Shown here: in pieces, positions 469-64,000 of the stretch
Layout: each line of letters starts with the position of its first letter
Position numbering within the stretch: position 1 is the stretch's first letter
From: Solirubrum puertoriconensis
GTDB lineage: Bacteria > Bacteroidota > Bacteroidia > Cytophagales > Hymenobacteraceae
Direction: 5' to 3'
NCBI RefSeq assembly: GCF_001483135.1
Contig: NZ_LNAL01000007.1
Location: 434,001 to 498,000 of the forward strand
Length of the DNA stretch: 64,000 nt
The notes under the pieces: generated by a model
Seen by the model: the letters and a program-made list of their open reading frames with translations, nothing else
Told to the model about the DNA's origin: nothing
The model's database searches: none
Translations under genes and position numbers: made by a program

Positions 469-2102
469 AATCGCGCGAGCAGGAATACCGGGAATTGTTT
501 ATGGCTGAAGCCTTAGAGGCTTACGACGCCATGAGCCAGCACATTTCTGTGCTGGAGAAGCGACCCGACGATGAGGCTGCGTTACATGAGCTGTTCCGTT
601 TGATGCACAACCTCAAGGCCAACGCCCGTGCCATTGGCTTTGCCGAAATTGGCGAGGTTGCTCACCGCATGGAAACGATCTTCGGAGAAATCCGGAGCAA
701 ACAACGCATTTTCGCGGGCTCACTGGTGCCCGTACTGTTTGCCGGCGTCGATGCCATCGGTGAAATGATCCGGGCCGTGGGGGCCAACCAAACCCTGCCC
801 AATAGCTCGGTGCTGCTGGAAAACCTCGACCGCGTGATGCGCGGCGAGGAGCCTTTGCTGGATTCGGCACAAGCGGCTCCGTCGGACGAGGATGCAAACC
901 GTAAGCTGGAGCTTTCGGACTTGGTTTACATCCCCATCAAGAAGCTCGACCACCTCCTCAACCTAGTAGGGGAGTTGATCATTGACCGCGACCGGGTTCT
1001 TACCCTCAGCCAAGAGATTGGCAACCTAGGTCTTTCGAACGTAGCCGCCCACCTGAGCCGCCTGGCCGACGACCTGCAGTATTCGGTGATGGATGCGCGG
1101 TTGGTAGGCGTGGGCACGCTGTTCAACAAGTTTCCGAGGGTGGTGCGTGATGTTGCCACGGCCGAGCAAAAGCAGGTTGAATTGACCATTAGCGGGCAGG
1201 ACATTCAGATTGACCGCAACATTCTGCAAATCATAACCGATGCCTTGCTGCACTTGGTGCGAAACGCCATTGGTCACGGCATCGAAACACCTGAGGAGCG
1301 CACCCGTGCGGGCAAATCGCCGCTGGGGCACTTGACCCTCTCGGCGCAAACCGAGCGCGACGACGTATTGATTCGCATCATCGACGATGGGCGCGGCATT
1401 GACGTGGAGCGCGTGCGGCGCAAAGCTGTTGCGCGCGGTCAGCTGCCAGCCGACGTTGCTGCCCGTTTAACCGATGCCGAGGTATACAGCCTCATGTTTG
1501 AGGCCGGATTCTCCACTGCCGAACAGGTAACGGAAATTTCGGGCCGGGGTGTAGGGCTTGATGTAGTGAAGCTGGCCATTGACTCCCTAGGTGGCCAGGT
1601 GCGTGTCGACTCGCAGATGGGGCAGGGTACCACTTTTACCCTCGTACTGCCTACTTCCATCGCGGTAAAAGGTGCGTTGCTATTCCAGCTTGAAGAGCAT
1701 TCGTACGCGCTGCCACTAATGCACACCGATTCGGTGGTGTCGTTGCGGCCCGAGCAGCTGCACGCCGTAGGCGGTATGTTGCTGGCCAAAGTGCAAGAAG
1801 AACACATTCCGGTAGTAAAGCTGGCCGAGCTGCTCGACGATTCCGATGAGCCCCTGCAGCCCGCCGACCGCGAAGCCCTGATGGGGCGCCAGGATATTAT
1901 CATCACCAGCTACAATGGTCGTAAGCTGGGCCTGATTGTCGACCAGTTTCTGCGCCAGCAGGACATTGTAATTAAACCCGTGAGCCAGCCGCTCGACATG
2001 ATTGACTTGTTTGGCGGCGTCACACTACTTGGCAGTGGGCAGGTGTGTTTGGTACTGGACGTACCAGCCCTGACGCGCCTTTTTATAGCCCGCCGCCCAT
2101 GA
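465..2102 (+). CDS. cheA: Chemotaxis histidine kinase CheA
   Basis: A 545-residue CheA. An N-terminal HPt domain carries the phospho-accepting His48 in MHNLKANA. A dimerisation helix follows (KLDHLLNLVGELIIDRDR), then the ATP-binding core with an N-box (LVRNAIGHGIE), G1 (DDGRGID) and G2 (GRGVGLDVV), then a CheW-like domain to the end. There is no obvious CheY-binding P2 domain, so it is shorter than the usual 650-700 residues. In the N-box the expected DHG reads GHG, one base away from Asp. I chose ATG 465 over 417 because homology begins just after it and it overlaps the cheB stop. A CheC-like gene follows 68 bases downstream. Confidence 0.95.
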   Translation: MKSREQEYRELFMAEALEAYDAMSQHISVLEKRPDDEAALHELFRLMHNLKANARAIGFAEIGEVAHRMETIFGEIRSKQRIFAGSLVPVLFAGVDAIGEMIRAVGANQTLPNSSVLLENLDRVMRGEEPLLDSAQAAPSDEDANRKLELSDLVYIPIKKLDHLLNLVGELIIDRDRVLTLSQEIGNLGLSNVAAHLSRLADDLQYSVMDARLVGVGTLFNKFPRVVRDVATAEQKQVELTISGQDIQIDRNILQIITDALLHLVRNAIGHGIETPEERTRAGKSPLGHLTLSAQTERDDVLIRIIDDGRGIDVERVRRKAVARGQLPADVAARLTDAEVYSLMFEAGFSTAEQVTEISGRGVGLDVVKLAIDSLGGQVRVDSQMGQGTTFTLVLPTSIAVKGALLFQLEEHSYALPLMHTDSVVSLRPEQLHAVGGMLLAKVQEEHIPVVKLAELLDDSDEPLQPADREALMGRQDIIITSYNGRKLGLIVDQFLRQQDIVIKPVSQPLDMIDLFGGVTLLGSGQVCLVLDVPALTRLFIARRP

Positions 2103-2170
2103 TACACGTACAGTCAAATTCGGGTCGCCGCCGAGTTGCCGCCGGCCTGCTACCTAACTGACCCACCCGT

Positions 2171-2806
2171 ATGGACCTGCACATGAACGATCTGGAACGG
2201 GACATTATCCGCGAAATCCTCAACATTGGATTGGCGCGGGCAGCCGACTCGTTTGCTGCCATTGCCCAAGAGAAAGTGTTGCTGGAGGTACCGAGCCTTG
2301 AGCTGGTACGACCGCGCGATATACTCAAGATGGTGAACAAGTACCAAGCACAGCACGTGGTTGTGCAGTCGGACATTAAAGGCGACTTTAATGGTACTAC
2401 ACTGATGTTCTTTTCGGGGCAGCACGTACAGCGCTTATCGCACGTGTGCTTACGACAAACGATTGAGGAAACCCTCAACCTGAATGAAATGCAGGAATCG
2501 TTGCTGCTCGAAATTAGCAACATCATTACGGGTGCGCTGGTAACGCAGCTCGCCAATATCCTAAAAGCCAAGATCTACGGAGCGCCACCCCGAGCTCCGA
2601 AAGGCGACTTGGCACATGCCCTTGATAACCTGCTGCTGACCCACCCGCAAATGCAGCCGCTGATCTTTTCGGTTATCACGCAGTTTTCGGATCAAAACAG
2701 CAACGTGGAGCTCCCGCTGATGCTGTTCTTCGACCGCCTGACTTTCGACAAAATTCTTTCCATCATTCGCACCTACGACCTGCCTGGCAACGGCCAACTC
2801 GCCTAG
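2171..2806 (+). CDS. CheC-like chemotaxis phosphatase
   Basis: A 211-residue protein with the two-fold CheC/CheX signature: EILNIGLARAAD near residues 14-25 and LLEISNIITGALVTQL near 112-127. In this family the paired Glu/Asn residues hydrolyse the phosphate on CheY, so this gene probably ends the signal produced by the neighbouring CheA. It is the last gene of the visible che operon; no cheD follows. A second in-frame ATG at 2183 could also be the start. The stop TAG lies inside a CCTAGG palindrome (2802-2807). CheC rather than FliY or CheX is judged from length and the two complete motifs; the assignment is to the family, not to one member. Confidence 0.8.
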   Translation: MDLHMNDLERDIIREILNIGLARAADSFAAIAQEKVLLEVPSLELVRPRDILKMVNKYQAQHVVVQSDIKGDFNGTTLMFFSGQHVQRLSHVCLRQTIEETLNLNEMQESLLLEISNIITGALVTQLANILKAKIYGAPPRAPKGDLAHALDNLLLTHPQMQPLIFSVITQFSDQNSNVELPLMLFFDRLTFDKILSIIRTYDLPGNGQLA

Positions 2807-2840
2807 GTTGCCGGGCAGGAGTGTTGCTTACCGCACCCTC

Positions 2841-3938
2841 ATGCACGATCCTATCACGCTTTCGTTGCAGCAGAAGCTGGCCAATTTCGACCCCAACGCC
2901 GTTGGTGATACCTCGGGTGGATTGTTTGGTCTGCCTTTCACGGTTGATGAGGCCCAGGTTGTTGTGGTGCCCGTGCCGTGGGAAGTAACCGTATCGTACC
3001 GCGCGGGTACCGCTCAGGGCCCCGCCGCTATTGCCGAAGCTTCGGCACAGGTTGACCTCTACGATCCGGACATTGCCGACGCTTGGAAATTGGGCTTGGC
3101 CATGGACGAAATCAACGCTGAGTGGGAAGCCGAAAGCAAGCAGTTGCGCGAGTCGGCCGAAGAGTACATCAATTGGCTTGAGGATGGCCAACCTCAAGCA
3201 AACGCTGCTTCGCACCAGACCATCCCGGCTAAGGTAACCGAACGCGGCAAGGCTCTGTTGGAATGGCTGAAAGTGAAAACCGGGCAATACCTCGATGCCG
3301 GCAAGGCAGTAGTTGTACTTGGCGGCGACCACAGCACGCCCCTAGGGTATATGCACGCGCTGGCGGAGCGCCACGAAGAGTTCGGTATTTTGCAGATTGA
3401 TGCTCACTGCGACCTGCGCGTAGCCTACGAAGGCTTCCAGTATTCGCACGCATCTATCATGTATAACGCCCTTCAGCTGCCCCAGGTGAAAAAGCTGGTG
3501 CAAGTAGGCATCCGCGACCTGTGCCAGCAAGAGGCCGACGTAATTGCACAGTCGGGCGGACGTGTGGTAATGTTCCACCACCGCTTCTTGCGCGATGAGA
3601 TGTACGGTAAGAAATCGTGGAAAAAGCAATGCAGCAAAATCATTGCTCAGCTGCCACAAAAGGTGTACCTCAGCTTTGATATCGACGGCCTCGATCCGAA
3701 GCTGTGCCCTGGCACCGGCACGCCGGTACCCGGCGGACTTGAGTTCGAGGAGGCCCTGTACCTAATTCGTGCCGTTGTGCGCTCGGGCCGCCAGATCATC
3801 GGCTGCGACCTGAATGAGGTTGCTCCCGGCGACACCGACTGGAACGGCAACGTAGGCGCACGCCTGCTCTACCAAATGATTAACTGGATGGCCGTTTCGC
3901 AGGGCCGCCTCACGGCGAACGGGATAACCACCGTGTAG
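2841..3938 (+). CDS. Agmatinase/arginase-family ureohydrolase
   Basis: A 365-residue ureohydrolase that should cleave a guanidino substrate with a binuclear Mn centre. The metal-binding signatures are present in order: GGDHS, DAHCDLR and SFDIDGLDP, with the characteristic PGTGTPVPGG just after. An insert rich in Glu/Gln around residues 95-135 separates the N-terminal strand from the first metal motif, longer than in E. coli SpeB. Substrate (agmatine, arginine, formiminoglutamate or other) cannot be settled from these motifs. I take ATG 2841; an upstream TTG at 2808 lies immediately after the cheC-like stop. It ends before a strong hairpin terminator at 3966-4001. Confidence 0.85.
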   Translation: MHDPITLSLQQKLANFDPNAVGDTSGGLFGLPFTVDEAQVVVVPVPWEVTVSYRAGTAQGPAAIAEASAQVDLYDPDIADAWKLGLAMDEINAEWEAESKQLRESAEEYINWLEDGQPQANAASHQTIPAKVTERGKALLEWLKVKTGQYLDAGKAVVVLGGDHSTPLGYMHALAERHEEFGILQIDAHCDLRVAYEGFQYSHASIMYNALQLPQVKKLVQVGIRDLCQQEADVIAQSGGRVVMFHHRFLRDEMYGKKSWKKQCSKIIAQLPQKVYLSFDIDGLDPKLCPGTGTPVPGGLEFEEALYLIRAVVRSGRQIIGCDLNEVAPGDTDWNGNVGARLLYQMINWMAVSQGRLTANGITTV

Positions 3939-4030: not shown

Positions 4031-4366
4031 ATGGGCTTCATCCTGAAATTCATTCTCAGTGCCATCATCGCCTACGTGCTTACCAAGGTGCTGCCGGGGG
4101 CTCACCTAGGTAGCATCGTCGATGCGCTTTTGCTGGTGGTGGTATTGGGACTCCTCAACGCTATTGTTAAGCCAATCCTTAAATTCATCGGCTTTCCCAT
4201 CACTATCCTTACGCTAGGTCTGTTTTTGTTGGTAATTAATGCCATCATTCTGCTATTGGCCGACTGGATACTGCCGGGTTTCAAAGTAGATGGCTTCATT
4301 TCTGCTCTCATCTTCAGCTTCGTGCTGACAATAGTTACGGCCATCGTCGATATGATTGTGGATTAG
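4031..4366 (+). CDS. Small four-helix membrane protein, phage-holin 4 superfamily (PF04020-like)
   Basis: A 111-residue, almost wholly hydrophobic protein with about four predicted membrane segments (roughly residues 3-22, 30-50, 55-78 and 85-110). The central NAIVKPILKFIGFPITILT pattern is typical of the PF04020 family, named after a mycobacteriophage holin but widespread on bacterial chromosomes and of unknown role. Nothing nearby looks like phage, so a lysis function should not be assumed. It stands alone between two terminators and is therefore probably transcribed on its own. Confidence 0.75.
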   Translation: MGFILKFILSAIIAYVLTKVLPGAHLGSIVDALLLVVVLGLLNAIVKPILKFIGFPITILTLGLFLLVINAIILLLADWILPGFKVDGFISALIFSFVLTIVTAIVDMIVD

Positions 4367-5482: not shown

Positions 5483-6790
5483 TTATACGCGTTTGATCTG
5501 CGCACCTAGGGCTTGCAGGCGACCATCAATGTTCTGATAGCCGCGGTCGATTTGCTCCACGTTCAGAATGGTGCTTTTGCCCTCGGCCGAAAGGGCGGCA
5601 ATCAGCAGCGCGACGCCAGCACGAATGTCGGGCGACGTCATGGTGATGCCGCGCAGGGCGTGGCGTTTATCTAAACCAATTACGATGGCACGGTGCGGGT
5701 CGCAAAGGGTGATTTGCGCGCCCATGTCGATGAGCTTATCCACGAAGAACAGGCGCGACTCAAACATCTTCTGGTGAATGAGCACGGTGCCTTTGGCTTG
5801 GGTAGCTACCACCAACGCAATGCTCAGCAGATCGGGCGTAAAGCCCGGCCAAGTGTGGTCGGAGATGGTTAGGATAGAGCCGTCGAGGTAGGTGGCAATT
5901 TCGTAGCGGTCTTGGGCCGGTACGAAAATGTCATCGCCGCGGTATTCCAGCTTTATGCCCAGCTTGCGGAAGGTATCTGGGATAAGGCCGAGCTCCGGAA
6001 TCTGGCAGTTTTTGATGGTGATTTCCGAACCCGTCATGGCGGCCAGACCAATGAACGAGCCAATCTCAATCATGTCGGGCAGCATGCGGTGTTCGGTACC
6101 ACCTAGGCGCTCCACGCCTTCAATGGTAAGCAGGTTGGAGCCGATGCCTTGGATTCTGGCGCCCATGCGCACCAGCATCTTGCAGAGTTGTTGCAGGTAA
6201 GGCTCGCAGGCCGCGTTGTAAATGGTGGTGGTGCCTTCGGCTAGCACTGCGCCCATTACAATGTTGGCCGTGCCCGTTACCGAAGCTTCATCAAGCAGCA
6301 TGTGGGCGCCGTGTAGCTTGCCCGCGCTCGATATTTTGTAGAAGTCGGTGCCTTCTACCTTTAGCTCGCCGCCAAGTTTTTGCAGGCCTACAAAGTGGGT
6401 GTCGAGCGGACGACGGCCAATTTTGTCGCCGCCGGGCTTGGGCAGCTGGCACTTGCCAAACCGTGCCAGCATCGGGCCCAAAATCATTACCGAACCGCGC
6501 AGCTCGCGCGCCTGCTTTATAAAAGCCGGCGTGTCGAGGTAGTCAAGGTTCACAGCGTCGGCCTGAAAGCGGTAGGTCTCAGCACCAAGGCGCTCCACCT
6601 TCACGCCCATGTCAGCCAGCAGCTCAATGAGCTTGTTGACGTCGCGGATGTCGGGGATGTTCGAAATGGTTACCGGCTCGGCAGTCAGGAGCACGGCACA
6701 AATAATTTGTAGAGCCTCGTTTTTGGCTCCTTGCGGCACAATTTCGCCGCGTAGCGGTTGCCCGCCGATTACTTCAAATGCTGCAGACAT
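5483..6790 (-). CDS. murA: UDP-N-acetylglucosamine 1-carboxyvinyltransferase MurA
   Basis: A 435-residue full-length MurA that transfers enolpyruvate from PEP to UDP-GlcNAc, the first committed step of peptidoglycan synthesis in the cytoplasm. Landmarks are QGAKNEALQ near the N-terminus, RGSVMILGPMLARFG, and PGGDKIGRRPLD. The last contains Asp122 where E. coli has the fosfomycin-reactive Cys115, so natural fosfomycin resistance is expected. The gene starts 5 bases after the DUF4290 stop, and the two are almost certainly co-transcribed. A strong terminator follows. Confidence 0.97.
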   Translation of the reverse strand: MSAAFEVIGGQPLRGEIVPQGAKNEALQIICAVLLTAEPVTISNIPDIRDVNKLIELLADMGVKVERLGAETYRFQADAVNLDYLDTPAFIKQARELRGSVMILGPMLARFGKCQLPKPGGDKIGRRPLDTHFVGLQKLGGELKVEGTDFYKISSAGKLHGAHMLLDEASVTGTANIVMGAVLAEGTTTIYNAACEPYLQQLCKMLVRMGARIQGIGSNLLTIEGVERLGGTEHRMLPDMIEIGSFIGLAAMTGSEITIKNCQIPELGLIPDTFRKLGIKLEYRGDDIFVPAQDRYEIATYLDGSILTISDHTWPGFTPDLLSIALVVATQAKGTVLIHQKMFESRLFFVDKLIDMGAQITLCDPHRAIVIGLDKRHALRGITMTSPDIRAGVALLIAALSAEGKSTILNVEQIDRGYQNIDGRLQALGAQIKRV

Positions 6791-6795
6791 GTACT

Positions 6796-7512
6796 CTATT
6801 GCGGCGGTTGTTGCTGGTCGCGTCCTCCTTTTTTGCCCCGACGCTTATCGCGCCGGTCGTTTTTGCCTCCTCCACGGCGCTGGTCACGGTCGCCACGTTC
6901 AGCACGCGGTTGTTGTACCAAAAAGGTACCGCTGCGCCCACCACCAGCGGCACCGGCAATGGTATCGAGGCCGCCTAGGGTTTCCAGCTGATTGATATCA
7001 AGCACCAACTTGCCGCCCGAAAGGTCTTTCAGGTGCTTCAGAATGGTTACATCCTTCGGCACGTCCTTGCTGTGCATGCGGTACAGGAACTTCATCACGC
7101 GTCCAACCGAAAGGGCCGCCTGCTCGCGCTCGGTTGCATCCTCAATTTCGGTGGCCTTGGCAATGAGTTCCTCTACGTTCTTACCATAAGGCCGCAGCTT
7201 GGGTGCCTTGTTGGGGTAGGCGAGGGGCTTTGGCTTCTGGTTAAACTGGTCGAGGCCAGTCAGCTCGAAAGGAGCGTCCACGTCCAGCTGGTTGCCGGTC
7301 ATGGCATAAAGGTGGTTCCAGAGCTTGTGCTGGTAGTCCTGCTGCTCGCGCACGCCCGGGTTCAGGCGGAACATCAGCTGCACCACTTGGTGGGCGCGCT
7401 TCGTGCGCTCGGCGCGGTCTTCCAGCGTGAGCAGCGTTTGGGCCAATTGGTATGTGTTATGGCCGTATTCGCGCACCAGCAGCTGGAGCTGCGGAGGGAG
7501 GGTTTCAGTCAT
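6796..7512 (-). CDS. DUF4290 domain protein
   Basis: A 238-residue protein of the Bacteroidota family DUF4290, recognised by the N-terminal pattern (LLVREYGHNTYQLAQTLL) and its typical place directly upstream of murA. Function is unknown; the constant linkage suggests a link to cell-wall synthesis, which is inference only. The last 40 residues are a basic Arg/Gly/Lys/Gln-rich tail that could bind nucleic acid or be disordered. ATG 7512 is preferred over the upstream frame start at 7599 because family homology begins at MTETLPPQLQ. A TATATTTAG element near 7607-7615 on the minus strand could be its -7 promoter box. Confidence 0.85.
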   Translation of the reverse strand: MTETLPPQLQLLVREYGHNTYQLAQTLLTLEDRAERTKRAHQVVQLMFRLNPGVREQQDYQHKLWNHLYAMTGNQLDVDAPFELTGLDQFNQKPKPLAYPNKAPKLRPYGKNVEELIAKATEIEDATEREQAALSVGRVMKFLYRMHSKDVPKDVTILKHLKDLSGGKLVLDINQLETLGGLDTIAGAAGGGRSGTFLVQQPRAERGDRDQRRGGGKNDRRDKRRGKKGGRDQQQPPQ

Positions 7513-10597: not shown

Positions 10598-11170
10598 ATG
10601 ATTGTCATCCAGAATACCATCGTTTCCGACGATGTCCGCGACCAGTTTTTCGTTTGCAACCTTGAGCGCTGCAAGGGTGCTTGCTGCGTTGAAGGCGACC
10701 TAGGGGCTCCGCTCGAAGAGGAAGAACTTAAGATTCTGGAGCAGGAATACGACAAGATTAAGCCATTCCTTACCCTAGGTGGCCGCCATGCTATCGAGGA
10801 GCAAGGGCTGTACATCAAGGATTGGGAAGGCGACTACAGCACCACCACCATCGATAACCGCGAATGCGCCTACGCCCTCTACGACGAGCGCGGTATTCTG
10901 AAATGCGGCATCGAGCAGGCTTACTTAGCCGGCGCCACCACGTTCAAAAAACCTATCAGCTGCCACTTGTACCCCATCCGCATCAGCAAGTACGATGAGT
11001 TCGACGCGCTGAATTACGACCGATGGGAAATCTGCAACCCGGCGTGTGCCTTCGGAGCGCAGCTAGGCGTACCAGTTTACAAGTTTCTGAAGGAGCCGCT
11101 GATTCGGAAATATGGAGAGCAGTGGTACTCCGAGCTGGTTCAGGAGATTGAAGCTCCAAAAGCAAGCTAA
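10598..11170 (+). CDS. DUF3109 family Cys-cluster protein
   Basis: A 190-residue cytoplasmic protein of DUF3109, a relative of the YkgJ-type zinc/iron-binding domain. Eight cysteines include [11 protein letters not shown] near the N-terminus, ECAY and KCGIEQ in the middle, SCHLYPIR, and CNPAC near the C-terminus, consistent with a metal or Fe-S site. No catalytic role is established for the family. ATG 10598 is chosen because a perfect -7 promoter box sits just upstream. It is divergent from pcrA and convergent with accC, separated from the latter by an exceptionally long hairpin. Confidence 0.85.
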
Positions 11171-17392: not shown

Positions 17393-17451
17393 GTGAGGGG
17401 AGAATCGGGAGAAAGAAGCAATACCACCTAGGGCACTCAGTCTTTCCGAGT

Positions 17452-18611: not shown

Positions 18612-18696
18612 TATCAGGGAGTGATGCGAGGTGTGGAACCGACACCGTTGCCGATGCCGGGCTTGATGCCGATCAGTTAAGTTAGGGCCCTAGGTG

Positions 18697-21131: not shown

Positions 21132-21151
21132 GGCTATGGCCCGCCCAAGCG

Positions 21152-22784: not shown

Positions 22785-22841
22785 GCACCTCAGCTGGATT
22801 GCCCTAGGTGATGCAGCCCTTACATAATGGCATTTGCAAGG

Positions 22842-25679: not shown

Positions 25680-25776
25680 GCCCGCTTCTGCGTATGCTAT
25701 CGGAAGCTAACCAAAGCCTAGGTGGGCTTATTGCATGTGCGCGTGCAGCAACCCATGGCTACCCCGGCGTTTACCG

Positions 25777-26940: not shown

Positions 26941-26957
26941 CCGGATACCTAGGGCGG

Positions 26958-34126: not shown

Positions 34127-34147
34127 GCCGCCCTAGGTGCGGAATTG

Positions 34148-46269: not shown

Positions 46270-46327
46270 GCGGGCGCGGAACTGAGCGCAAAAATGGCGA
46301 TTAGCGCCGAAGCTAGCCCTAGGTGCC

Positions 46328-50055: not shown

Positions 50056-50107
50056 CAAAATTTGCTCGTGGTGCTGATCAATTGCTTCGGGCTAACTCGC
50101 CACCACC

Positions 50108-51977: not shown

Positions 51978-52145
51978 GTGATGTGGTAAAAAGCCGAGCA
52001 AGCGGTGTACGAACCAGCAACCAGGCCGGATTGCTAGCTGCCATCAGCCTGATGGGCAATGGCACCAGCTGCCGCTCGAGCAACCGATGATTAGCACCTA
52101 GGAACAGCAACCTGCAGCCTAACCTACCCAGCGGCGCCGTAAGGA

Positions 52146-55289: not shown

Positions 55290-55438
55290 GGTTTTAACAG
55301 CCTCCTAGGTACACGCCGCCCGCGCAACGCCAGTTTTGGCCGCGTGTGGGTGGCGTTCGGCTTCATAGGGTACGGCTGGCTGCCATCATCTGCCCGAGGC
55401 CTTGCTCACCTAGGGCAACAATCCCGCGAGGACCCATT

Positions 55439-55488: not shown

Positions 55489-55506
55489 ATGCTTTGCTGC
55501 AGCTAC

Positions 55507-57030
55507 CTAGGCGTGAGTTTCCTTGGAGGTTTTCTCAGCGGTATTGTTGGCAAAGCGGTGCCCAAAGAAGAAATACACCGGTACACCTAGGGCCACCAAC
55601 AGCAGACCGCGGCGCGAAAACTCGGCGGTGGGCTCGGCAAACAACAGAATCAGACAGAACATGCTGGCCAGCAGCACATAAATAGCCGGCAGCACCGGGT
55701 AACCCCAAGCGCGGTAGGGGCGCGGCGCCTCGGGGCGCGTGCGGCGCAGCACGAAAATGCCCACGATGGTGATGACGTAGAACAGAATCACCGAGAACAT
55801 TACGTAGTTCAGCAACTGCCCGTACGAGCCGCTCAGGCACAATAGGCAGGCCCACAGACACTGTGCCCACAGCGCCCGTGCCGGTACGCCAGCCGAGTTC
55901 AGCCGGGCCAGTCCCGGGAAGAAAAGGCCATCCTTGGCCATGGCAAAGTAGGCGCGGGCCCCCGAGAGAATGATGCCATTGTTGGCGCCAAACGTGCTGA
56001 GCATAATCAGCACGGCCAACACTACCGCGCCCGACGGCCCAAGCACGTGCTCGGCTACGGCGGTGGCTACGCGGTCGTCGGTGGCGTACATAATGCCGCG
56101 GCCGGCAATGGTAGTAGCGTCGGGCGAGCCACCTAGGGGCAGCACCAGCAGGTACACCACGTTGGAGAGGATGTACAGCGCCGTTACGATAGCCGTGCCG
56201 ATGGCCATGCTGCGTACCAGCGTACGCTCGGGGTTTTTAATTTCTTCGCCGGCAAAACCGATGTTGTTCCAGGAATCAGACGAGAACAGAGAGCCCGTCA
56301 TGGCCATGCCAATGGCCACTACCAGCCCACCCGTCGTGAGCGACTTGGGCAACCAACTCTCGCCGGGGGGCGGGAAGCTTAGCGACTGCCACATGTTTGA
56401 GAAGTTGGCTTGCACGGCTTCGGCATTGAGCCCGAGGGTAAGGCCACCCAGGATAAGCAGCGCCAGCGCCACCAGCTTGGTGCTGCCCAGCACGTTTTGG
56501 ATGAGCTTGCCTGCGCGCACGCCACGGGCGTTGATGGCCGTAATGCCCACAATCAGCAGAATGGCGAGCAGCTGCACACTGCTGAACTCGAACGTGTACT
56601 CGCCGATGAAGGGCAGCGACATCGGCCCGGCGCTGAACAATACGTTCTTCACGCTAAACCACGGCACCAGCACCCCCGTGAACTTGGCAAACGCCACGGC
56701 TACCGCGGCAATTACCCCGGTTTGGATTACCAGAAACAGCGACCAGCCATACAAAAACGCGATGAGCTTGCTGTACGCCTCCTTCAGATACACATATTGC
56801 CCGCCTACTTTCGGGAACATGGAGGCCAGCTCGCCGTAGCTCACGGCCCCGGCCAACGTGATGACGCCTGTAAGCAGCCACACCACCAGCAGCCAGCCGC
56901 TCGAGCCTACCTGCCGGCCAATGTCGGCCGAGACGATAAAAATACCGGAGCCGATCATGCTGCCGGTTACAATCATAATGGCGTCAAACAGCCCGATGGC
57001 CCGTTGAAAGTGGCCTTGTTGTTCGCTCAT
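55507..57030 (-). CDS. APC-family amino acid permease
   Basis: A 507-residue transporter with about 12 membrane helices. The family signature GLFDAIMIVTGSMIGSGIF begins helix 1, and YGELASMFPKVGGQYVYL marks the helix 3 region; PEAPRPYRAWGYPVLP precedes the last helices. LAT-type exchangers and cationic or neutral amino-acid permeases share this build; the substrate is not predictable. ATG 57030 is preferred over 57081. It lies alone on the minus strand. Confidence 0.88.
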   Translation of the reverse strand: MSEQQGHFQRAIGLFDAIMIVTGSMIGSGIFIVSADIGRQVGSSGWLLVVWLLTGVITLAGAVSYGELASMFPKVGGQYVYLKEAYSKLIAFLYGWSLFLVIQTGVIAAVAVAFAKFTGVLVPWFSVKNVLFSAGPMSLPFIGEYTFEFSSVQLLAILLIVGITAINARGVRAGKLIQNVLGSTKLVALALLILGGLTLGLNAEAVQANFSNMWQSLSFPPPGESWLPKSLTTGGLVVAIGMAMTGSLFSSDSWNNIGFAGEEIKNPERTLVRSMAIGTAIVTALYILSNVVYLLVLPLGGSPDATTIAGRGIMYATDDRVATAVAEHVLGPSGAVVLAVLIMLSTFGANNGIILSGARAYFAMAKDGLFFPGLARLNSAGVPARALWAQCLWACLLCLSGSYGQLLNYVMFSVILFYVITIVGIFVLRRTRPEAPRPYRAWGYPVLPAIYVLLASMFCLILLFAEPTAEFSRRGLLLVALGVPVYFFFGHRFANNTAEKTSKETHA

Positions 57031-57125
57031 GCAAATGGAGGAAGGTAGAAATGGGGCAGGAATATAGAGGTTTGGGTACAAAACCTTGCGTTGCTTGCTC
57101 CTAGGTTACGCCCAGCGCCAATTAA

Positions 57126-58106
57126 CTATTTGGCAAGCGGAGCCTGAAAGCCGGCGCTGATGCGCTCGGCCGCTTCAGTATTGCCTAGGTCGGCGGCGCG
57201 CTGCCAATCGGCAGTAGCACCGGCAATGTTGCCGGTTTGCATGTGTAAGTCGCCGCGCTCGAGGTACAGCCAACCTTTGCTGGTTGCTTTAGCGGCCAGC
57301 TCGTCGTAGCGTTGCTGCGCTTGCGCCTGCTTGCCGCTCTTTTCGGCTACAAAGGCGCTAATCAGCTGCAGTTGCTCGTCGGCTGGCTTGAGCTTAAGCG
57401 CCTGTTCCGCATCCTGTTTCGCTTGGGTGGTGTTGTTGGCAATCAGCTGCAACAGGGCCCGGTTGGCATAGCCGTATGGGTCTTTGGGATGGCGCCGAAT
57501 TTGCTCGGCGCTGCTGAACTTGGCCTCGGTGTACCGGCCAGCAACCATCTGCACAATGCAGCGGTACGTCCAAACTTCATCCTCGTTGGGGCCAAATTCA
57601 ACGGCTTTGTTTAAGTCGAGCAATGCACCGGGCAGGTCGTTGGTGTACAGCCGGCACACCCCGCGGCATAGAAAGACAAGCGGCTGCCTCGGATGCGTGG
57701 TGGCAGCCTGGTTTAAATCGGTTAGGGCTTCGGGAAAGCGCCTCAACTGCATGTAAGCCGCCCCGCGCGAGGCCAGCAGCAGCCCGTCGTTTGGGGCGAA
57801 ACGCTCGGCCTTGTTGTAGTCGAGCAGGGCTGCCTCGTGTTCCTTGAAGAACATTCGGCACTCGGCTCGCAAATACAAATAGTTGGGGTTTAGGCTATCG
57901 GTTTGCAGCAACCGATTTAGCTCGGGCAGGGCCTCGGCGTATTCTTCCTTAATCAGCTTGCGTTGCAACGCTGGCTTGACCGCTGACAGAGGATTAGAAA
58001 AGCGTTGAGCGGCGGCGGGCAACGCAAGTCCTAGGCCGATCATCAGCACCAACAGCCTGCTTAGGGTAAAACGCAGCAAATAATTGGGCGTAACATTCCA
58101 ACGCAT
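57126..58106 (-). CDS. Secreted TPR protein
   Basis: A 326-residue protein with a signal peptide (hydrophobic residues 12-33, cleavage after PAAA) and about six tetratricopeptide repeats: EYAEALPELNRLLQTDSLNPNY and HEAALLDYNKAERFAPNDG, then RFPEALTDLNQA, DLPGALLDLNKA, TTQAKQDAEQAL and AGATADWQRA. TPR arrays are protein-binding scaffolds. No partner is evident. It shares a divergent promoter region with the large propeller gene. ATG 58106 is preferred to TTG 58112. Confidence 0.85.
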   Translation of the reverse strand: MRWNVTPNYLLRFTLSRLLVLMIGLGLALPAAAQRFSNPLSAVKPALQRKLIKEEYAEALPELNRLLQTDSLNPNYLYLRAECRMFFKEHEAALLDYNKAERFAPNDGLLLASRGAAYMQLRRFPEALTDLNQAATTHPRQPLVFLCRGVCRLYTNDLPGALLDLNKAVEFGPNEDEVWTYRCIVQMVAGRYTEAKFSSAEQIRRHPKDPYGYANRALLQLIANNTTQAKQDAEQALKLKPADEQLQLISAFVAEKSGKQAQAQQRYDELAAKATSKGWLYLERGDLHMQTGNIAGATADWQRAADLGNTEAAERISAGFQAPLAK

Positions 58107-58245: not shown

Positions 58246-60981
58246 ATGTCGCAACGCCTACTGGTATTGTTTTCGGGATTATTGCTGCTGTCGGCGTTGG
58301 CATCGTACGTGTACTACCGCCGCGCCGTAGCCAGTACTCCCGTCGACTTGTGGGCGCTTGTACCCGAGGATGCCGTGCTGGTAACCGCCACGCACGACCA
58401 CCGCACACTGGTGCGCCACCTCAAGGAAACGCAGCTCTGGGACAACCTGGCCACGCTCAGCTACTTTCAGCAGGTAGAGGAGCACGTTGCCTTGCTCGAT
58501 AGCCTCGGCGGCACACGCAATTCGGTGCTCGGCTTTCTGGGCTCCAAAACGGTGCTTACTTCAGTGCACGTAACGGGGCCACGGAGTTTCGATTTGCTGT
58601 TTGTGGTGCCCGTGCGCAGCGTGCGGGAGCACCGGCAGGTGCGCACCCTAGTGGAGGGCCTAGGTCGCGATGCGCGGTTTCAGGTAAGCCAACGCAATTA
58701 CGAGGGTGCCCAACTCACGCAAATTCGGCAGCGCAGCACCGGCGAGGGTATCACCTATTTTAACTACCGCAACACCTTGGTGATGAGTGCCAATGGTGCT
58801 TTGGTTGAGGCCGTGGTACGCCGCACCGAGCAGGCGGAGCAACCCACGGTGGCCGCCGAGTTTGGCGACACCGACTACCTGAAAATCAAAGGAGTGGATG
58901 CGACGCTGCTCGTAAACTACCGGCAGCTGCCACCGTTTTTGGAAGTGTTTTTCCGGCCCGAGCTACGCTCCGAGTTTGAGGCCGTAGCCAGCCTCTGCGA
59001 CAAAGGCATGCTGCAGATGAAGCTGACGAGCAACCGCGTGTTGTTCAACGGTTTCTCCAACCCCGAGCGGGCGGCAGGCTCCTTGCACCAGCAGCTCCGT
59101 ACCCAGCCAGCGGGGCGTTTGCGCATGGCCGATGTGCTAAGCAACCGCACGGCCGTGTTGCTGCACATGGCCGCCACGCCGCAAGCCTTGCGCACCGCAA
59201 GGGCGCGTGCCAACGCCGATACGTTGGCTGCTGCGCTGGTAGATAGCACCACCGCTACCCTCGACGCGGAAGCCGCCCTATTCTACCTGGCTACACCCTC
59301 GGCCCGCGTTACGCCCGGCCGGTTGGTGCTGGTGCGCAGCCGCAACGCTGCCCGCACCGCCCAGTGGCTGGGCTTGCTACGGCGGCGCACTGGCACTAGC
59401 CCCAGCTTTGAGCGGGTAGGGCAGTACCAGCTGCACCAAGCGCCCATGCCGCAATTAGCGCAGCGGCTCCTAGGGCCGATGATCGGGGCTGGCGCACCTG
59501 GTGCTGGTACGGGTGCTACTGCGATGGTGGGCGACTACCTGGTGCTGTCGGAAGATGCGGCTGCGCTGCGCACGTACTTGGCCGACGTAGCCGCCGACCA
59601 GGTCTGGAGCCGCTCGCCTTCGCAAGTGGCTTTGCTGCAGGAAAATACCCCGCTGGCCCGCCTTAGCTTGCTGCTTGATACGCGCAACACCTGGAACCTG
59701 CTGCTGCGGGCCCTGGTGGAGGAGCGCCGCGCTGGCCTACTCCGCAACGAAACCCTGTTCAAGCGCTTCCCGCAAGTGGCGCTGCAGTTTGCCCCTGCCG
59801 ATAACGGGCAGTACTACACGCAGTTGGTGCTGCGCCACCCGCCCGTAGGCCCGGCTATAGCCTCGCCGCAATCAAAGGATGGCAGCACCAGTAGCCTGAG
59901 CTTCGAGGCCGGCCTTACCGACCTAGGGCCGGTGCTGGTACCAACCACGGGCACCCGCTCGCCGGCTACCGTGGTGCAAGACCGCAACGGCGCCCTGCAC
60001 TATATCACCCCCGATAACACGGTTGCCTGGTCCGACTCGCTTGGCGCCCCACTGGTGACCCCGCCGGGTTTGCTGCCAAGCGCGTTTGGCCCGCGCCCAG
60101 GGCTGCTGTTTGCTACGCCCAACCGTTTGCACCTGCTCGACGAGCGAGGTCAATCGGCGGCGCTTTTCCCCTTCAACCTACCCGATACCGTGCAGTTGGC
60201 CGGGCTTAGCAGTTTGCCCGCCGCCGAAGGGCAACCCACATACCTGCTGGCCGCCGACCGCTACGCCAACTTATTTCTCTTTAATACCCGCGGCAATGCC
60301 CCTGCGGCTTGGCAGCCCAAGCGGCTCGATTTTGCCCTGGCAGCCGCCCCGCAATTGCTACGGGTAGGGGGGCGCGTGGTGGTGGTAGCTCCGCTCGAAA
60401 ACGGCTATATTTTCGCCTACGACCTCGAAGGCAATACCTTGCCCGGCTTCCCGATCAGCCTGGGGGCACGCCTGCACACGGCTGGCTTTGTGGAAAGCGG
60501 CCCCACCTTGCGGCGCACGCGCATTACGCTTGTCAACCAACACGGCGAGCTAATCAGCTTCAATCTTAGCGGCGAGATTACCCAGCGCCGCCGCCTTACT
60601 ACCTGGAGCCGCACCAGTACCTTCCAAGTAATACCCGATCAGGATAAAACGCGCTTTGTGGTGCTGCGCGATGATGGCATGGGCCGCGTAACAGTGTTCG
60701 ACGCCAACGGCCAGCGCCTGGTAGAGAAGCGCTTTGTTACCTCAGCCCCAAAGAGCTGCCAGGTCTTTAGTTTCGAGGAAGGCCGACGCGTTCTGGTGCT
60801 TTCCGAAAGCGGCCCTGGCAAGGCTTATATTTATGACACCCAGTACAAACTGGTAGGCGGGCAGCCCTTCGATAGCAATGCCGCCAATGTGGGCCTCACG
60901 TACGATGCCAGCGTTGGTATTTACCAGCTCTACCGCATAGTGGGCAACGAGCTGCGCCGCACCGCCCTACGCATGAACTGA
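58246..60981 (+). CDS. Large envelope protein, DUF3352-like domain plus beta-propeller
   Basis: A 911-residue protein with an N-terminal membrane helix (about 5-23), probably anchoring a periplasmic body. The first 560 residues resemble DUF3352-type proteins of unknown function (LVPEDAVLVTATHD, FLGSKTVLTSVHV, DYLVLSEDAAALRTYLADV). The last 330 contain propeller-type repeats (DRNGALHYITPDNTVAWSD, LHLLDERGQSAALFPF, YIFAYDLEGNTLPGFPISLG, VTVFDANGQRLVEKRF). ATG 58246 is preferred since the -7 box at 58212 excludes the upstream start at 58171. No function is known. Confidence 0.75.
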   Translation: MSQRLLVLFSGLLLLSALASYVYYRRAVASTPVDLWALVPEDAVLVTATHDHRTLVRHLKETQLWDNLATLSYFQQVEEHVALLDSLGGTRNSVLGFLGSKTVLTSVHVTGPRSFDLLFVVPVRSVREHRQVRTLVEGLGRDARFQVSQRNYEGAQLTQIRQRSTGEGITYFNYRNTLVMSANGALVEAVVRRTEQAEQPTVAAEFGDTDYLKIKGVDATLLVNYRQLPPFLEVFFRPELRSEFEAVASLCDKGMLQMKLTSNRVLFNGFSNPERAAGSLHQQLRTQPAGRLRMADVLSNRTAVLLHMAATPQALRTARARANADTLAAALVDSTTATLDAEAALFYLATPSARVTPGRLVLVRSRNAARTAQWLGLLRRRTGTSPSFERVGQYQLHQAPMPQLAQRLLGPMIGAGAPGAGTGATAMVGDYLVLSEDAAALRTYLADVAADQVWSRSPSQVALLQENTPLARLSLLLDTRNTWNLLLRALVEERRAGLLRNETLFKRFPQVALQFAPADNGQYYTQLVLRHPPVGPAIASPQSKDGSTSSLSFEAGLTDLGPVLVPTTGTRSPATVVQDRNGALHYITPDNTVAWSDSLGAPLVTPPGLLPSAFGPRPGLLFATPNRLHLLDERGQSAALFPFNLPDTVQLAGLSSLPAAEGQPTYLLAADRYANLFLFNTRGNAPAAWQPKRLDFALAAAPQLLRVGGRVVVVAPLENGYIFAYDLEGNTLPGFPISLGARLHTAGFVESGPTLRRTRITLVNQHGELISFNLSGEITQRRRLTTWSRTSTFQVIPDQDKTRFVVLRDDGMGRVTVFDANGQRLVEKRFVTSAPKSCQVFSFEEGRRVLVLSESGPGKAYIYDTQYKLVGGQPFDSNAANVGLTYDASVGIYQLYRIVGNELRRTALRMN

Positions 60982-60997: not shown

Positions 60998-62032
60998 ATG
61001 CGCCGGGGGCTGGTTGTAGGTAAGTTTGCACCTTTTCATCGCGGGCACCAGTACCTGCTGGAGGCCGCCGCCGCGCACTGCGACGAGCTACACGTGTGGG
61101 TGTACTCCAACCCCGACCCGAAAAGCATGCCCGCCCCGGTGCGTGCCCGTTGGATAGAGCTCATTTACGCCCAACCCCAGGGCCCAGCCATCGGCCGTAC
61201 GCCGCTCCGGGTTCGTAGCTTCTTGCCGGAGCTCGATAACCTGCCGCCTAACTCAGCCCCCGATTACGCGCACCGCGAGTTTGTGCGCCAACAGCTGTTA
61301 GACTCAGGCATTTCCATTGACGTGGTATTCACCAGCGAAGCCTACGGCCCGGGCTTTGCCGAGCACCTAGGCGCCGAGCACGTGCTGGTTGATGCCAAGC
61401 GCCTGCGGGTGCCCATCTCGGGCACCCAGGTGCGGGCCGATGTGTACGGGCTGGCTAACTGGCTGCACCCGGTGGTGCAAGCGCACTTTACCTCGCCCGA
61501 GTACGTGCAGCGCGCGGTACTGCTCGGGGCCGAAAGCACCGGCAAATCAACGCTTGCAGCAGCCCTAGGTCGGCAGTATGGTACCAGCTGGGTGCCCGAG
61601 TACGGCCGCACTTTGTGGGAAGCACAACAGGGCCAATTGGCCTACCCCGATTTGCTGCGCATTGCGCATAGGCACCGCGAGCTGGAGGACGAGGCCCTAG
61701 CGAAGGCCCGCCACTGGCTGTTCGTCGACACCAACGCCGTTACCACGCTCTTCTATTCGTACGCCTACTACGGCCGCGCCGAAACCGAGCTGCACGCCTT
61801 GGCTCAGGAGTGCCGTACGCGTTACCAGCACACCTTTGTGTGCGCGCCCGATTTCCCGTTCGAGCAGGATGGTACCCGCGCTCCGGCCGCTGCCCAGGGC
61901 TTTCATCAGGCTGCCGTACTTATGCAGTTGGGCATGCTGAATATTCCTTACACTTTGCTTACGGGAAGCTTGGAGGAGCGCCTAAGGCAGGTATCGGCGG
62001 TGCTTGAAGTTGATCAGGATTCTAAATTATAG
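60998..62032 (+). CDS. nadR: NadR-type NMN adenylyltransferase/ribosylnicotinamide kinase
   Basis: A 344-residue bifunctional NAD-salvage protein. Residues 1-165 are a nucleotidyltransferase: GKFAPFHRGHQYLL with the HxGH motif (H14-H17) and ISGTQVRAD. Residues 170-344 are a P-loop kinase with GAESTGKST at 177-185 and the lid and base segments VPEYGRTLWE and FVDTNAVTT. It lacks the N-terminal HTH of the enterobacterial NadR, so it is an enzyme and not a repressor. It starts 16 bases after the propeller gene stop and may share its message. Eleven bases separate it from the convergent corA. Confidence 0.9.
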   Translation: MRRGLVVGKFAPFHRGHQYLLEAAAAHCDELHVWVYSNPDPKSMPAPVRARWIELIYAQPQGPAIGRTPLRVRSFLPELDNLPPNSAPDYAHREFVRQQLLDSGISIDVVFTSEAYGPGFAEHLGAEHVLVDAKRLRVPISGTQVRADVYGLANWLHPVVQAHFTSPEYVQRAVLLGAESTGKSTLAAALGRQYGTSWVPEYGRTLWEAQQGQLAYPDLLRIAHRHRELEDEALAKARHWLFVDTNAVTTLFYSYAYYGRAETELHALAQECRTRYQHTFVCAPDFPFEQDGTRAPAAAQGFHQAAVLMQLGMLNIPYTLLTGSLEERLRQVSAVLEVDQDSKL

Positions 62033-63279: not shown

Positions 63280-63425
63280 ACAAGCGGTAAGCTAAGGGCC
63301 CAGGGGCCATCCTTGGCGTAATGCTACGCAGCGGCGGCCATAAATGTGCTGCCCGATGCCGGCAAGTCTGACTTATCGACCTAGGGCCACAGGGGCTGGC
63401 AACCACTTACGGGCGTTTTTTACGT

Positions 63426-63434
63426 TACCTTCGC
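63426..63434 (+). promoter_or_regulatory. Possible -7 element for the edge gene
   Basis: TACCTTCGC is a TTCG variant of TAnnTTTG(C), 21 bases before GTG 63455. Confidence 0.4.
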
Positions 63435-63454
63435 AGCCTTACAGTTTTGCCCGC

Positions 63455-64000
63455 GTGACTCATTTGCCTTCTTCCGACGTGTCTGCCGCTGCCGTTGCTG
63501 GCGAAGTGTGCGCGTTGCAGAGCGGCCACGGGCGCTACCAACTCCGCTGGCAGCACGAGTTTACGCCTGCCTACCCGCTGGCCGAGGAGCTGTACTTGTA
63601 CCTGCAGCCCGACCAACTGGCCCACGCCAATGTGCCTGGCCAACGCCTACTGGTGCTGCTCGAAGATTTGCACCTAGGGCAAACTGTTGGCTGGTGGCCG
63701 GTGCTCATCGCCCCCAATGCCGAAGCGCGCAGCCCGTGGCAAGCACCGTTTGGAGGCCCGCAGCTGTTGCGCCCCGATGTGCCCGCCGGCGTGCTCGATG
63801 AGTGGCTTACGCAAGTGCACCTAGGGTTGGCCGCGCGGGGCGCCCAGCGGCTGGTGCAGCGCTTGGCTCCTTTTGCCTACGAGCCCCGCACCATGGGGCC
63901 GCTGGTAGCGGCCTTGCAACGTACCGGGCACACCATCAGCTTGGCCGAAATCGACAGCTACTTGCCATTGGAGCATGCCTATGATGCGCGCCTGCACCCC
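63455..64000 (+). CDS. Unidentified protein, 3' end beyond the window
   Basis: A GTG-started frame runs without a stop to the window edge, giving 182 codons. It reads THLPSSDVSAAAVAGEVCAL and then a Leu- and His-rich sequence (ELYLYLQPDQLAHANVPGQR, LLVLLEDLHLGQTVGWWPV, QVHLGLAARGAQRLVQRLAP, TMGPLVAALQRTGHTISLAE). Two of the CCTAGG copies encode Leu-Gly within it. The layout resembles a GNAT-type acetyltransferase, but I cannot name the family. Codon use and a promoter-like box upstream support a real gene. Confidence 0.65.
   Translation, partial: MTHLPSSDVSAAAVAGEVCALQSGHGRYQLRWQHEFTPAYPLAEELYLYLQPDQLAHANVPGQRLLVLLEDLHLGQTVGWWPVLIAPNAEARSPWQAPFGGPQLLRPDVPAGVLDEWLTQVHLGLAARGAQRLVQRLAPFAYEPRTMGPLVAALQRTGHTISLAEIDSYLPLEHAYDARLHP

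What the first reader, a model, noticed from the sequence alone, without database searches (positions are those of the whole stretch)
1025..63825. Highly iterated palindrome CCTAGG(T): a possible HIP1-like element in a Bacteroidota genome
I count about 81 CCTAGG sites in 64 kb, against roughly 20 expected from base composition near 60% GC. CTAG-containing words are usually under-represented in bacteria, which makes the excess more surprising. About 74 copies share a 7-base core CCTAGGT/ACCTAGG (about 8 expected). Copies are spread evenly over both coding strands and are about twice as dense as expected in intergenic DNA, so codon choice alone does not explain them. The pattern recalls HIP1 (GCGATCGC) in cyanobacteria. 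Possible meanings are a methylation or segregation mark, an uptake signal, a repair-linked site, or mutation bias.
Basis: partly seen in the sequence, partly recalled or inferred. Interest (0 to 1): 0.82.

Follow-up and report, generated by a model that had tools for sequence, protein, structure and literature searches.

The report
Species-specific repeated DNA word, ACCTAGGG
Some bacteria of the Hymenobacter family carry five to nine thousand copies of one short near-palindromic DNA word spread through their chromosomes, overriding normal codon choice, while sister species have almost none; no shared DNA-methylating enzyme was found to go with it, which makes the old puzzle of such words testable.

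Summary
The window's genome (G000) has 6212 CCTAGG (4.1x composition); the preferred word is ACCTAGG[GC]. It has no strand bias, is denser between genes, and is rare in sampled plasmid and prophage DNA. Three of 8 held genomes of the genus have it; the other five have 29-66 times fewer per Mb. In the family 9 of 200 exceed 5000 copies; of 311 outside it in the order, none exceeds 1349. Positive genomes share the core but differ in flanks. In G004, 128 of 130 best-flank C-CTN-GG sites read CTA, against 5 of 393 Leu codons in that context in negative relatives. Competing Leu codons other than TTA are depleted whatever mutation separates them: a force on the finished word. None of five Pfam methyltransferase families is common to all nine positive genomes. 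Best reading: a HIP-like self-DNA word kept by selection or molecular drive through an unidentified DNA-binding protein, possibly a DNA-uptake receptor.

The parts
1025..1030 (.). CCTAGG (A..T flanks)
1585..1592 (-). ACCTAGG[GC] octamer
2801..2808 (-). ACCTAGG[GC] octamer
3341..3346 (.). CCTAGG (C..G)
4105..4110 (.). CCTAGG (A..T)
5504..5511 (+). ACCTAGG[GC] octamer
6101..6108 (+). ACCTAGG[GC] octamer
6974..6979 (.). CCTAGG (G..G)
9979..9984 (.). CCTAGG (A..A)
10698..10705 (+). ACCTAGG[GC] octamer
10773..10780 (-). ACCTAGG[GC] octamer
14478..14485 (+). ACCTAGG[GC] octamer
15511..15518 (-). ACCTAGG[GC] octamer
16869..16876 (-). ACCTAGG[GC] octamer
17426..17433 (+). ACCTAGG[GC] octamer
18688..18695 (-). 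ACCTAGG[GC] octamer
18936..18943 (-). ACCTAGG[GC] octamer
20365..20372 (+). ACCTAGG[GC] octamer
20617..20624 (+). ACCTAGG[GC] octamer
21126..21133 (+). ACCTAGG[GC] octamer
22802..22809 (-). ACCTAGG[GC] octamer
23396..23403 (-). ACCTAGG[GC] octamer
23801..23808 (-). ACCTAGG[GC] octamer
24623..24628 (.). CCTAGG (T..T)
25199..25204 (.). CCTAGG (A..T)
25716..25723 (-). ACCTAGG[GC] octamer
26204..26211 (+). ACCTAGG[GC] octamer
26513..26520 (-). ACCTAGG[GC] octamer
26947..26954 (+). ACCTAGG[GC] octamer
28083..28090 (-). ACCTAGG[GC] octamer
28668..28675 (+). ACCTAGG[GC] octamer
29451..29458 (-). ACCTAGG[GC] octamer
30714..30721 (-). ACCTAGG[GC] octamer
30912..30919 (+). ACCTAGG[GC] octamer
31158..31165 (-). 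ACCTAGG[GC] octamer
31203..31210 (+). ACCTAGG[GC] octamer
32304..32311 (+). ACCTAGG[GC] octamer
34131..34138 (-). ACCTAGG[GC] octamer
34194..34201 (-). ACCTAGG[GC] octamer
34321..34328 (+). ACCTAGG[GC] octamer
35863..35870 (+). ACCTAGG[GC] octamer
36661..36668 (+). ACCTAGG[GC] octamer
37108..37115 (+). ACCTAGG[GC] octamer
39941..39948 (-). ACCTAGG[GC] octamer
40526..40533 (+). ACCTAGG[GC] octamer
40929..40936 (+). ACCTAGG[GC] octamer
41419..41426 (+). ACCTAGG[GC] octamer
42301..42308 (+). ACCTAGG[GC] octamer
42800..42807 (-). ACCTAGG[GC] octamer
42998..43003 (.). CCTAGG (G..C)
43982..43989 (+). ACCTAGG[GC] octamer
45358..45363 (.). CCTAGG (C..C)
45782..45787 (.). CCTAGG (A..T)
46317..46324 (-). 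ACCTAGG[GC] octamer
47117..47124 (+). ACCTAGG[GC] octamer
49448..49455 (-). ACCTAGG[GC] octamer
49911..49916 (.). CCTAGG (C..G)
50106..50113 (-). ACCTAGG[GC] octamer
50895..50902 (-). ACCTAGG[GC] octamer
51051..51058 (-). ACCTAGG[GC] octamer
51303..51310 (+). ACCTAGG[GC] octamer
51783..51790 (+). ACCTAGG[GC] octamer
52097..52102 (.). CCTAGG (A..A)
52525..52532 (-). ACCTAGG[GC] octamer
52990..52997 (+). ACCTAGG[GC] octamer
55304..55309 (.). CCTAGG (T..T)
55408..55415 (+). ACCTAGG[GC] octamer
55505..55512 (+). ACCTAGG[GC] octamer
55585..55592 (+). ACCTAGG[GC] octamer
56131..56138 (+). ACCTAGG[GC] octamer
57100..57105 (.). CCTAGG (T..T)
57183..57190 (-). ACCTAGG[GC] octamer
58030..58035 (.). CCTAGG (T..C)
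58658..58665 (-). ACCTAGG[GC] octamer
59469..59474 (.). CCTAGG (T..G)
59921..59928 (+). ACCTAGG[GC] octamer
61365..61372 (+). ACCTAGG[GC] octamer
61563..61570 (-). ACCTAGG[GC] octamer
63379..63386 (+). ACCTAGG[GC] octamer
63672..63679 (+). ACCTAGG[GC] octamer
63819..63826 (+). ACCTAGG[GC] octamer

Best explanation
A genome-wide, host-specific self-DNA word (a HIP-like element): about 6200 CCTAGG copies, preferred octamer ACCTAGG[GC], held near saturation at suitable synonymous sites and common between genes, by a force that acts on the finished sequence. SHOWN: genome-wide excess, presence in some close relatives and near absence from others, rarity in sampled plasmid and prophage DNA, a shared CCTAGG core with flank dialects, override of codon choice with depletion of the competing Leu codons (TTA excepted), no orientation skew, and no DNA-methyltransferase family (of five Pfam families) common to all nine positive genomes. 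INFERRED: the force is exerted through a sequence-specific DNA-binding protein whose flank preference drifts between species. The likeliest version is molecular drive by biased uptake and recombination of motif-bearing kin DNA, working like the DUS of Neisseriaceae and the USS of Pasteurellaceae; a selected intracellular binding site is the close rival. No uptake receptor or other binding protein has been found or searched for.
For: Counts. Patchiness: 3 of 8 held genomes of the genus, 9 of 200 of the family above 5000 copies, 0 of 311 order members outside the family above 1349. Rarity in mobile DNA: 3 octamers in 52.5 kb of plasmid-like contigs and 4 in a 20-kb stretch with a phage portal gene, against 1.09/kb in the other chromosome samples (plasmid homology). 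Dialects. Occupancy by flank: G004 A..G class 128/130, A..C 70/99, G..C 9/50. Force on the product: in G000 CTC, CTG, CTT and TTG all fall to 0.28-0.34 of their usual share, and Pro-Arg sites that need rare CCT AGG are filled 29 of 301 against 0.59 expected. Conservation: motif kept at 102/166 and 110/165 aligned sites in G007 and G004 against 0.36 and 0.34 for frame-matched 8-mers. Local density dependence, beyond a local mutation rate: 0, 0, 1 and 6 of 300 shuffles as low in G004, G184, G137, G180. No orientation bias and rarity in acquired DNA, as reported for uptake sequences (PMC1939737, PMC7811141, passages). Dialects around a fixed core are reported for DUS (PMC3630211, passages).
Against: No receptor, competence locus or DNA-binding protein was identified, and none was searched for in the genomes. 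Natural transformation of these bacteria was not tested; the 20 papers listed of 400 show no mention of Hymenobacter. DUS and USS are not palindromes (PMC1939737, passage), whereas this core is. Density dependence is not significant in G000 (35/300), the genome in question, nor in G007 (111/300) or G079 (36/300); the control among non-CTA codons is not flat in G137 (0.25 near, 0.52 far; n 20 and 21) and G184 (0.44, 0.67; n 32 and 24). In G007 CTG is depleted only to 0.65 and the central T is less conserved (0.759) than its control (0.836), so the word may be eroding there or turning over by transitions. TTA is not depleted in G000, G004, G007, G137 or G180. Rarity in plasmids fits recent acquisition under any model.
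Confidence: 0.4

Rival explanations
1. An intracellular site: the word is bound by a nucleoid, repair or replication-restart protein, and each copy is under weak selection (scaled strength about 5 to 7, inferred from log odds) for having one every few hundred bases.
For: High occupancy of suitable synonymous sites, turnover slower than matched controls, some exclusion of near neighbours in several genomes, gaps more even than random (CV 0.75-0.95), and similar density in 15 of 16 sampled chromosome stretches.
Against: Near-zero levels in relatives (0 of 75 sites kept in G002) mean that any such function is readily dispensable. No orientation or region preference that would point to a known system. 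No binding protein known.
Confidence: 0.33
2. A methylation-linked HIP as in cyanobacteria: an orphan methyltransferase recognises CCTAGG and methyl-directed mismatch repair ratchets the word up.
For: PMC4390886 (Discussion section read, parts 1 and 2 of 3) states that every HIP genome studied has a predicted MTase for some part of the word and proposes such a ratchet; density here (about 1290 CCTAGG/Mb) is in the same range. The same paper notes HIP1 genomes without the CGATCG MTase, so the link is not perfect there either.
Against: Of nine positive genomes, PF02086 matches none, PF00145 two, PF01555 four; PF07669 and PF02384 match eight of nine but not G000, and match all eight negative genomes searched too. 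G000's only match among the five families lies on a plasmid-like contig with 2 octamers in 12.5 kb.
Confidence: 0.12
3. Context-dependent mutation or biased mismatch repair (for example a reversed very-short-patch process) turns CCCAGG/CCTGGG into CCTAGG.
For: CCTGGG and CCCAGG are the commonest partners at aligned non-conserved sites (11 of 23 in G007; 13 of 42 aligned sites in G002). CTAG words other than CCTAGG are also raised in positive genomes.
Against: CTC, CTT and two-step TTG are depleted about as much as CTG in G000 and G004, and more than CTG in G007. Pro-Arg sites need transversions as well. Occupancy depends on neighbouring motifs in several genomes and on flanks that differ between species.
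Confidence: 0.12
4. Codon-pair or translational preference for Leu-Gly written CTA GGN.
For: Most genic octamers are in the Leu-Gly frame (300 of 323).
Against: Denser between genes than in them; both motif orientations about equally used in genes (158 and 142); effect concentrated in C_CTN_GG contexts with the right flanks (G..C 7/54 against A..G 62/69 in G000); Leu-Gly dipeptides hardly more frequent (0.89 per 100 codons in G000, 0.86 in negative relatives).
Confidence: 0.02

Closest known systems
HIP1 (GCGATCGC) and alternative HIPs of cyanobacteria (PMC4390886: passages; Discussion parts 1-2 of 3)
   Same: Short GC-rich palindrome at about 1000-2000 copies per Mb; rapid loss and replacement by other words in close relatives.
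   Different: Phylum Bacteroidota; core CCTAGG; asymmetric octamer in this clade; no methyltransferase family of five shared by the positive genomes, whereas that paper reports a predicted MTase for part of the word in every HIP genome.
DNA uptake sequences (DUS) of Neisseriaceae and their dialects (PMC3630211, passages)
   Same: Thousands of copies; fixed core with species dialects.
   Different: Core here is palindromic; no receptor (ComP) or competence system shown; presence is patchy among close relatives, whereas DUS dialects follow the phylogeny.
Uptake signal sequence (USS) of Pasteurellaceae (PMC1939737, PMC7811141: passages)
   Same: About one per kb, no orientation bias, over-represented in non-coding DNA, under-represented in newly acquired segments.
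   Different: USS is longer (a 31-bp full motif is used in PMC7811141) and non-palindromic; uptake bias is proven there and untested here.
AvrII-type restriction site CCTAGG (recalled, no call)
   Same: Same hexamer.
   Different: Restriction predicts avoidance, not excess (recalled), and no shared methyltransferase family was found.

Membership tests
HIP class (Elhai 2015) | Highly over-represented palindrome spread over the whole chromosome | tested here: met
   6212 CCTAGG, 4.1x composition; the octamer itself is not a perfect palindrome in this clade
HIP class (Elhai 2015) | Density about 1000-2000 per Mb | tested here: met
   about 1293 CCTAGG per Mb
[quoted passage not shown]
   No Pfam MTase family of five shared by nine positive genomes; G000 has only one match, on a plasmid-like contig. 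MTases outside these families, or a different one in each genome, are not excluded; specificity was not tested
DUS/USS uptake sequence | Preferential uptake of motif-bearing DNA by competent cells | not testable with these tools
   needs an uptake assay
DUS/USS uptake sequence | Cognate receptor and competence machinery | not tested
DUS/USS uptake sequence | Thousands of copies, no orientation bias, depleted in acquired DNA | tested here: met
   (acquired DNA: two plasmid-like contigs, one of them sampled in part, and one 20-kb stretch)
DUS/USS uptake sequence | Fixed core with species dialects | tested here: met
DUS/USS uptake sequence | Non-palindromic word | tested here: not met
   core CCTAGG is a palindrome; the ACCTAGGT and CCCTAGGG dialects are full palindromes
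Chi / KOPS-like oriented replication motif (features recalled) | Orientation skew along a replichore | tested here: not met
   161:188 over 314 kb of G004, 102:115 over 200 kb of G007, 2861:2962 genome-wide for ACCTAGG

The most novel reading that the evidence does not exclude
A DNA-level self-recognition word of Bacteroidota, independent of DNA methylation, that arises to near-saturation or disappears between close relatives and whose flanks drift as dialects; its reader would be an unknown sequence-specific protein, perhaps the first uptake-specificity system in this phylum.
Probability: 0.4. Interest if true: 0.9.

Novelty: new variant of a known kind. Interest (0 to 1): 0.78.

Why it matters
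HIP1's role is still called a mystery in the paper read here (PMC4390886). Here positive and negative species sit in one genus, differ 29-66-fold in CCTAGG per Mb and, across two genera, use different dialects, so gene gain and loss, uptake assays and binding assays can be lined up against the word. It also shows that such a word can exist without a methyltransferase family (of five tested) shared by its carriers, and can override codon choice at up to 128 of 130 best-flank sites.

Tried and rejected
Maximal-order Markov test: rejected as a null because sub-words are themselves motif. Relatives without the word were used as the null instead.

Methyltransferase correlation: no shared family. 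PF07669 and PF02384 are also in all eight negative genomes searched, and absent from G000.

A 1221-aa helicase of the window (28565-32230) was found in only 3 of 16 genomes searched, G000, G004 and G007, which are the three positive genomes of this genus; it was not found in any of the six positive Hymenobacter genomes searched, so it is not the general cause.

Single-gene UvrD tree: one row (G006) was wrongly read and has an absurd branch, so its count of five changes is not relied on. It placed G004 outside a group of G000, G007 and negative genomes; the 16,664-column tree of nine genomes from the window alignment makes the three positive genomes one side of a branch with full support. Gain and loss cannot be told apart from either.

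Sharing of sites between distant positive genomes (G184 8 of 12, G137 7 of 11, G079 11 of 28, G180 7 of 25, G058 2 of 6) was not used as evidence of common descent, since saturation makes convergence likely.

Intermediate genomes (G162, G163, G171, G172; 1209-2331 CCTAGG): samples of 20-80 kb show 0.30-0.40 CCTAGG/kb; in G162, G171 and G172 a weak GCCTAGGC preference. Too few sites to call growing or decaying.

Four Hymenobacter plasmid stretches in PLSDB carry 2-8 CCTAGG per 49 kb; the state of their hosts is unknown, so they are not counted as evidence.

Rows dropped before counts: the prophage-bearing stretch L006, contig C1 (all N) and the plasmid-like contigs were left out of the chromosome sets (plasmid-like contigs are shown apart); alignments under 100 bits or 150 bits were ignored; opportunities within 600 bases of a stretch end were left out; one search kept only opportunities with good flanks. 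Genes are from my own simple caller, not a standard one.

Literature: ten searches, listings seen; no listed title or abstract start reports this word in Bacteroidota. One listed paper that holds CCTAGG and one that holds CCCTAGGG were checked by passage: a reference title on lambda recombination and a table of 8-mers; the other four of the five papers were judged by title and abstract start. Many papers beyond the listed rows and most subscription journals were not seen.

Full report
OBSERVATION. The window is C7:434001-498000 of a 4.80-Mb genome, G000. Genome-wide there are 6212 CCTAGG and 2861 + 2962 ACCTAGG, 4.1 and 9.3 times composition. A maximal-order Markov null explains most of the count in the window (67.9 of 81), but only because its sub-words are motif; relatives without the word are a better null.

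THE WORD. In 504 kb of G000, G004 and G007 the core is flanked by A on one side and G or C on the other in 539 sites, against 18 sites of ACCTAGGT, 18 of GCCTAGGC and 8 of CCCTAGGG (both-strand counts halved for palindromes). So the preferred octamer here is ACCTAGG[GC]. It has no orientation bias: 161:188 and 102:115 over single 314- and 200-kb stretches, 2861:2962 genome-wide for ACCTAGG. In genes the two orientations are also about equal (158 and 142 in the Leu-Gly frame).

WHERE IT LIES. Of 16 sampled chromosome stretches of 20 kb or more, 15 have 1.15-1.70 CCTAGG per kb; one has 0.30 (L006), and it carries a phage portal gene. Plasmid-like contigs C4 and C5 have 0.05-0.16. C5 and C4 match parts of Hymenobacter plasmids; only 40 kb of C5's 259 kb was read. 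In 424 kb CCTAGG runs at 1.14/kb in genes and 2.08/kb between them, against 0.013 and 0.042 (4 and 2 copies) in negative relatives. Between genes it is densest between convergent genes in the three genomes of this genus, and in five genomes closer to upstream stops than to downstream starts in tandem pairs (control words also rise between convergent genes in G004 and G007).

WHO HAS IT. Of 8 held genomes of the genus 3 have it (G000, G004, G007: 5325-6212 CCTAGG); the other five have 123-249, 29-66 times fewer per Mb. Of 200 family genomes, drawn from a larger group, 9 exceed 5000, four lie at 1209-2331, and the rest do not exceed 888. In 311 genomes of the same order outside the family the maximum is 1349. 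One positive genome, G079, has a contig with the same length and matching coordinates as a Hymenobacter cavernae record, so I take g5 to be Hymenobacter; G000's own genus is unnamed here. The window alignment (16,664 first and second codon positions, nine genomes) makes G000, G004 and G007 one side of a branch with full support. Hence at least one switch in this genus, and probably more in Hymenobacter (a tree with one faulty row); gain or loss is undecided.

DIALECTS. The positive genomes sampled share the CCTAGG core, but the flanks differ: ACCTAGGS in this genus, ACCTAGGT in G079, G178 and G180, CCCTAGGG in G058, and a mixture in G137 and G184. Other CTAG words are raised as well, AGCTAGGT for instance in G079 and G180.

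HOW STRONG THE FORCE IS. At C_CTN_GG positions the choice of CTA depends on the flanks: in G004 128 of 130 for A..G, 70 of 99 for A..C, 9 of 50 for G..C (flank classes folded by strand); in G000 62 of 69, 80 of 106 and 7 of 54 (unfolded). Five negative relatives together use CTA in 5 of 393 Leu codons in C_GG context. Against Leu codons before non-Gly in the same genome the log odds ratio for the best flank is 4.7-7.1 in five genomes. Leu-Gly dipeptides are hardly commoner (0.89 per 100 codons in G000, 0.86 in negatives), so the force appears to stop at amino-acid change.

WHAT KIND OF FORCE. In G000 the competing codons CTC, CTG, CTT and TTG all fall to 0.28-0.34 of their share elsewhere; TTA does not (1.45, interval 0.87-2.10). 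G004 is similar (0.32-0.53; TTA 0.96). In G184 and G137 all four fall (0.07-0.40), though not by one factor. G007 departs: CTG 0.65, the others 0.18-0.29. The samples of G180 and G079 are small (48 and 54 codons; CTT in G180 0.79, interval 0-1.85). Pro-Arg sites, which need two rare codons, are filled 29 of 301 against 0.59 expected in G000. A single mutational route (C to T at CCCAGG) would deplete CTG alone; the pattern suits a force on the finished word. Sites close to another CCTAGG are filled less often: under 200 bp against further, 0.52/0.75 in G004, 0.63/0.89 in G184, 0.73/0.91 in G137, 0.54/0.97 in G180 (0, 0, 1 and 6 of 300 flank-stratified shuffles as low), but not clearly in G000 (0.69/0.78; 35 of 300), G079 (0.62/0.87; 36 of 300) or G007 (0.47/0.56; 111 of 300). 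With good flanks only, under 120 bp against 300 or more, Fisher p is 0.0006 (G184), 0.004 (G137), 0.02 (G004), 0.049 (G079), 0.056 (G180), 0.28 (G000) and 0.59 (G007). Near sites are still mostly filled in the larger samples. The control on non-CTA codons was not flat in G137 and G184, so this line of evidence is supportive, not decisive.

TURNOVER. Of G000 motifs aligned in G007 and G004, 102 of 166 and 110 of 165 are still motif, against 0.36 and 0.34 identity for frame-matched neighbouring 8-mers. In G002, G003, G005 and G006 none of 75, 33, 33 and 14 is kept, and 1 of 40 in G001. The central T is kept less than its control in G007 (0.759 against 0.836), so G007 may be losing the word.

METHYLATION. 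Five Pfam families were searched over all nine strong positives. PF00145: G007 and G079 only. PF01555: G000 (on plasmid-like contig C4), G007, G137, G058. PF02086: none. PF07669: eight, not G000, and under the cut-off in G004. PF02384: eight, not G000. No family is in all nine. PF07669 and PF02384 also match all eight negative genomes searched (two of them only under the cut-off for PF07669). The C4 MTase sits beside an open frame that may be its restriction partner (my reading, not searched). Cyanobacterial HIPs are reported to go with predicted methyltransferases in every genome studied (PMC4390886, Discussion parts 1-2 of 3); by that feature this is not shown to be a member, although it behaves like one.

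READING. A host-specific self-DNA word kept by selection or drive on the product. The uptake-sequence analogy fits copy number, lack of orientation, rarity in acquired DNA and dialects (PMC3630211, PMC1939737, PMC7811141, passages) but not the palindrome, and no receptor is known. Searches of the held library for the exact octamers, for Hymenobacter methylomes and for uptake sequences in Bacteroidetes gave nothing on this.

Noticed in passing
whole genomes, control columns: GGATCC is strongly depleted in G000 (136 in 4.8 Mb) and almost absent from some relatives (0 in G111; 1 each in G071, G093, G101, G109).
   Followed up: no
window 28565-32230: 1221-aa helicase-like protein (Helicase_C_2, DEAD) found only in G000, G004 and G007 of 16 genomes searched: the three motif-positive genomes of this genus.
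   Followed up: partly
G000 contig C4 (L012), 5493-7271: 12.5-kb plasmid-like contig with a PF01555 methyltransferase beside a 287-aa open frame on the other strand that may be its restriction enzyme.
   Followed up: partly
L006 (G000 C7:300001-320000): Stretch with a phage portal protein and low motif density, probably a prophage.
   Followed up: partly
window 26958-28481: DNA/RNA non-specific endonuclease (PF01223); a second one lies on contig C5 (L017:3192-4493).
   Followed up: no
L179 (Pontibacter flavimaris): AAGTATAA counted 37 times (both strands) in 22 kb, the highest top-8-mer count printed: maybe another repeated word.
   Followed up: no
13 chromosome samples: TGCGCA is about 1.6 to 2.2 times over expectation in all 13, positive and negative.
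   Followed up: no
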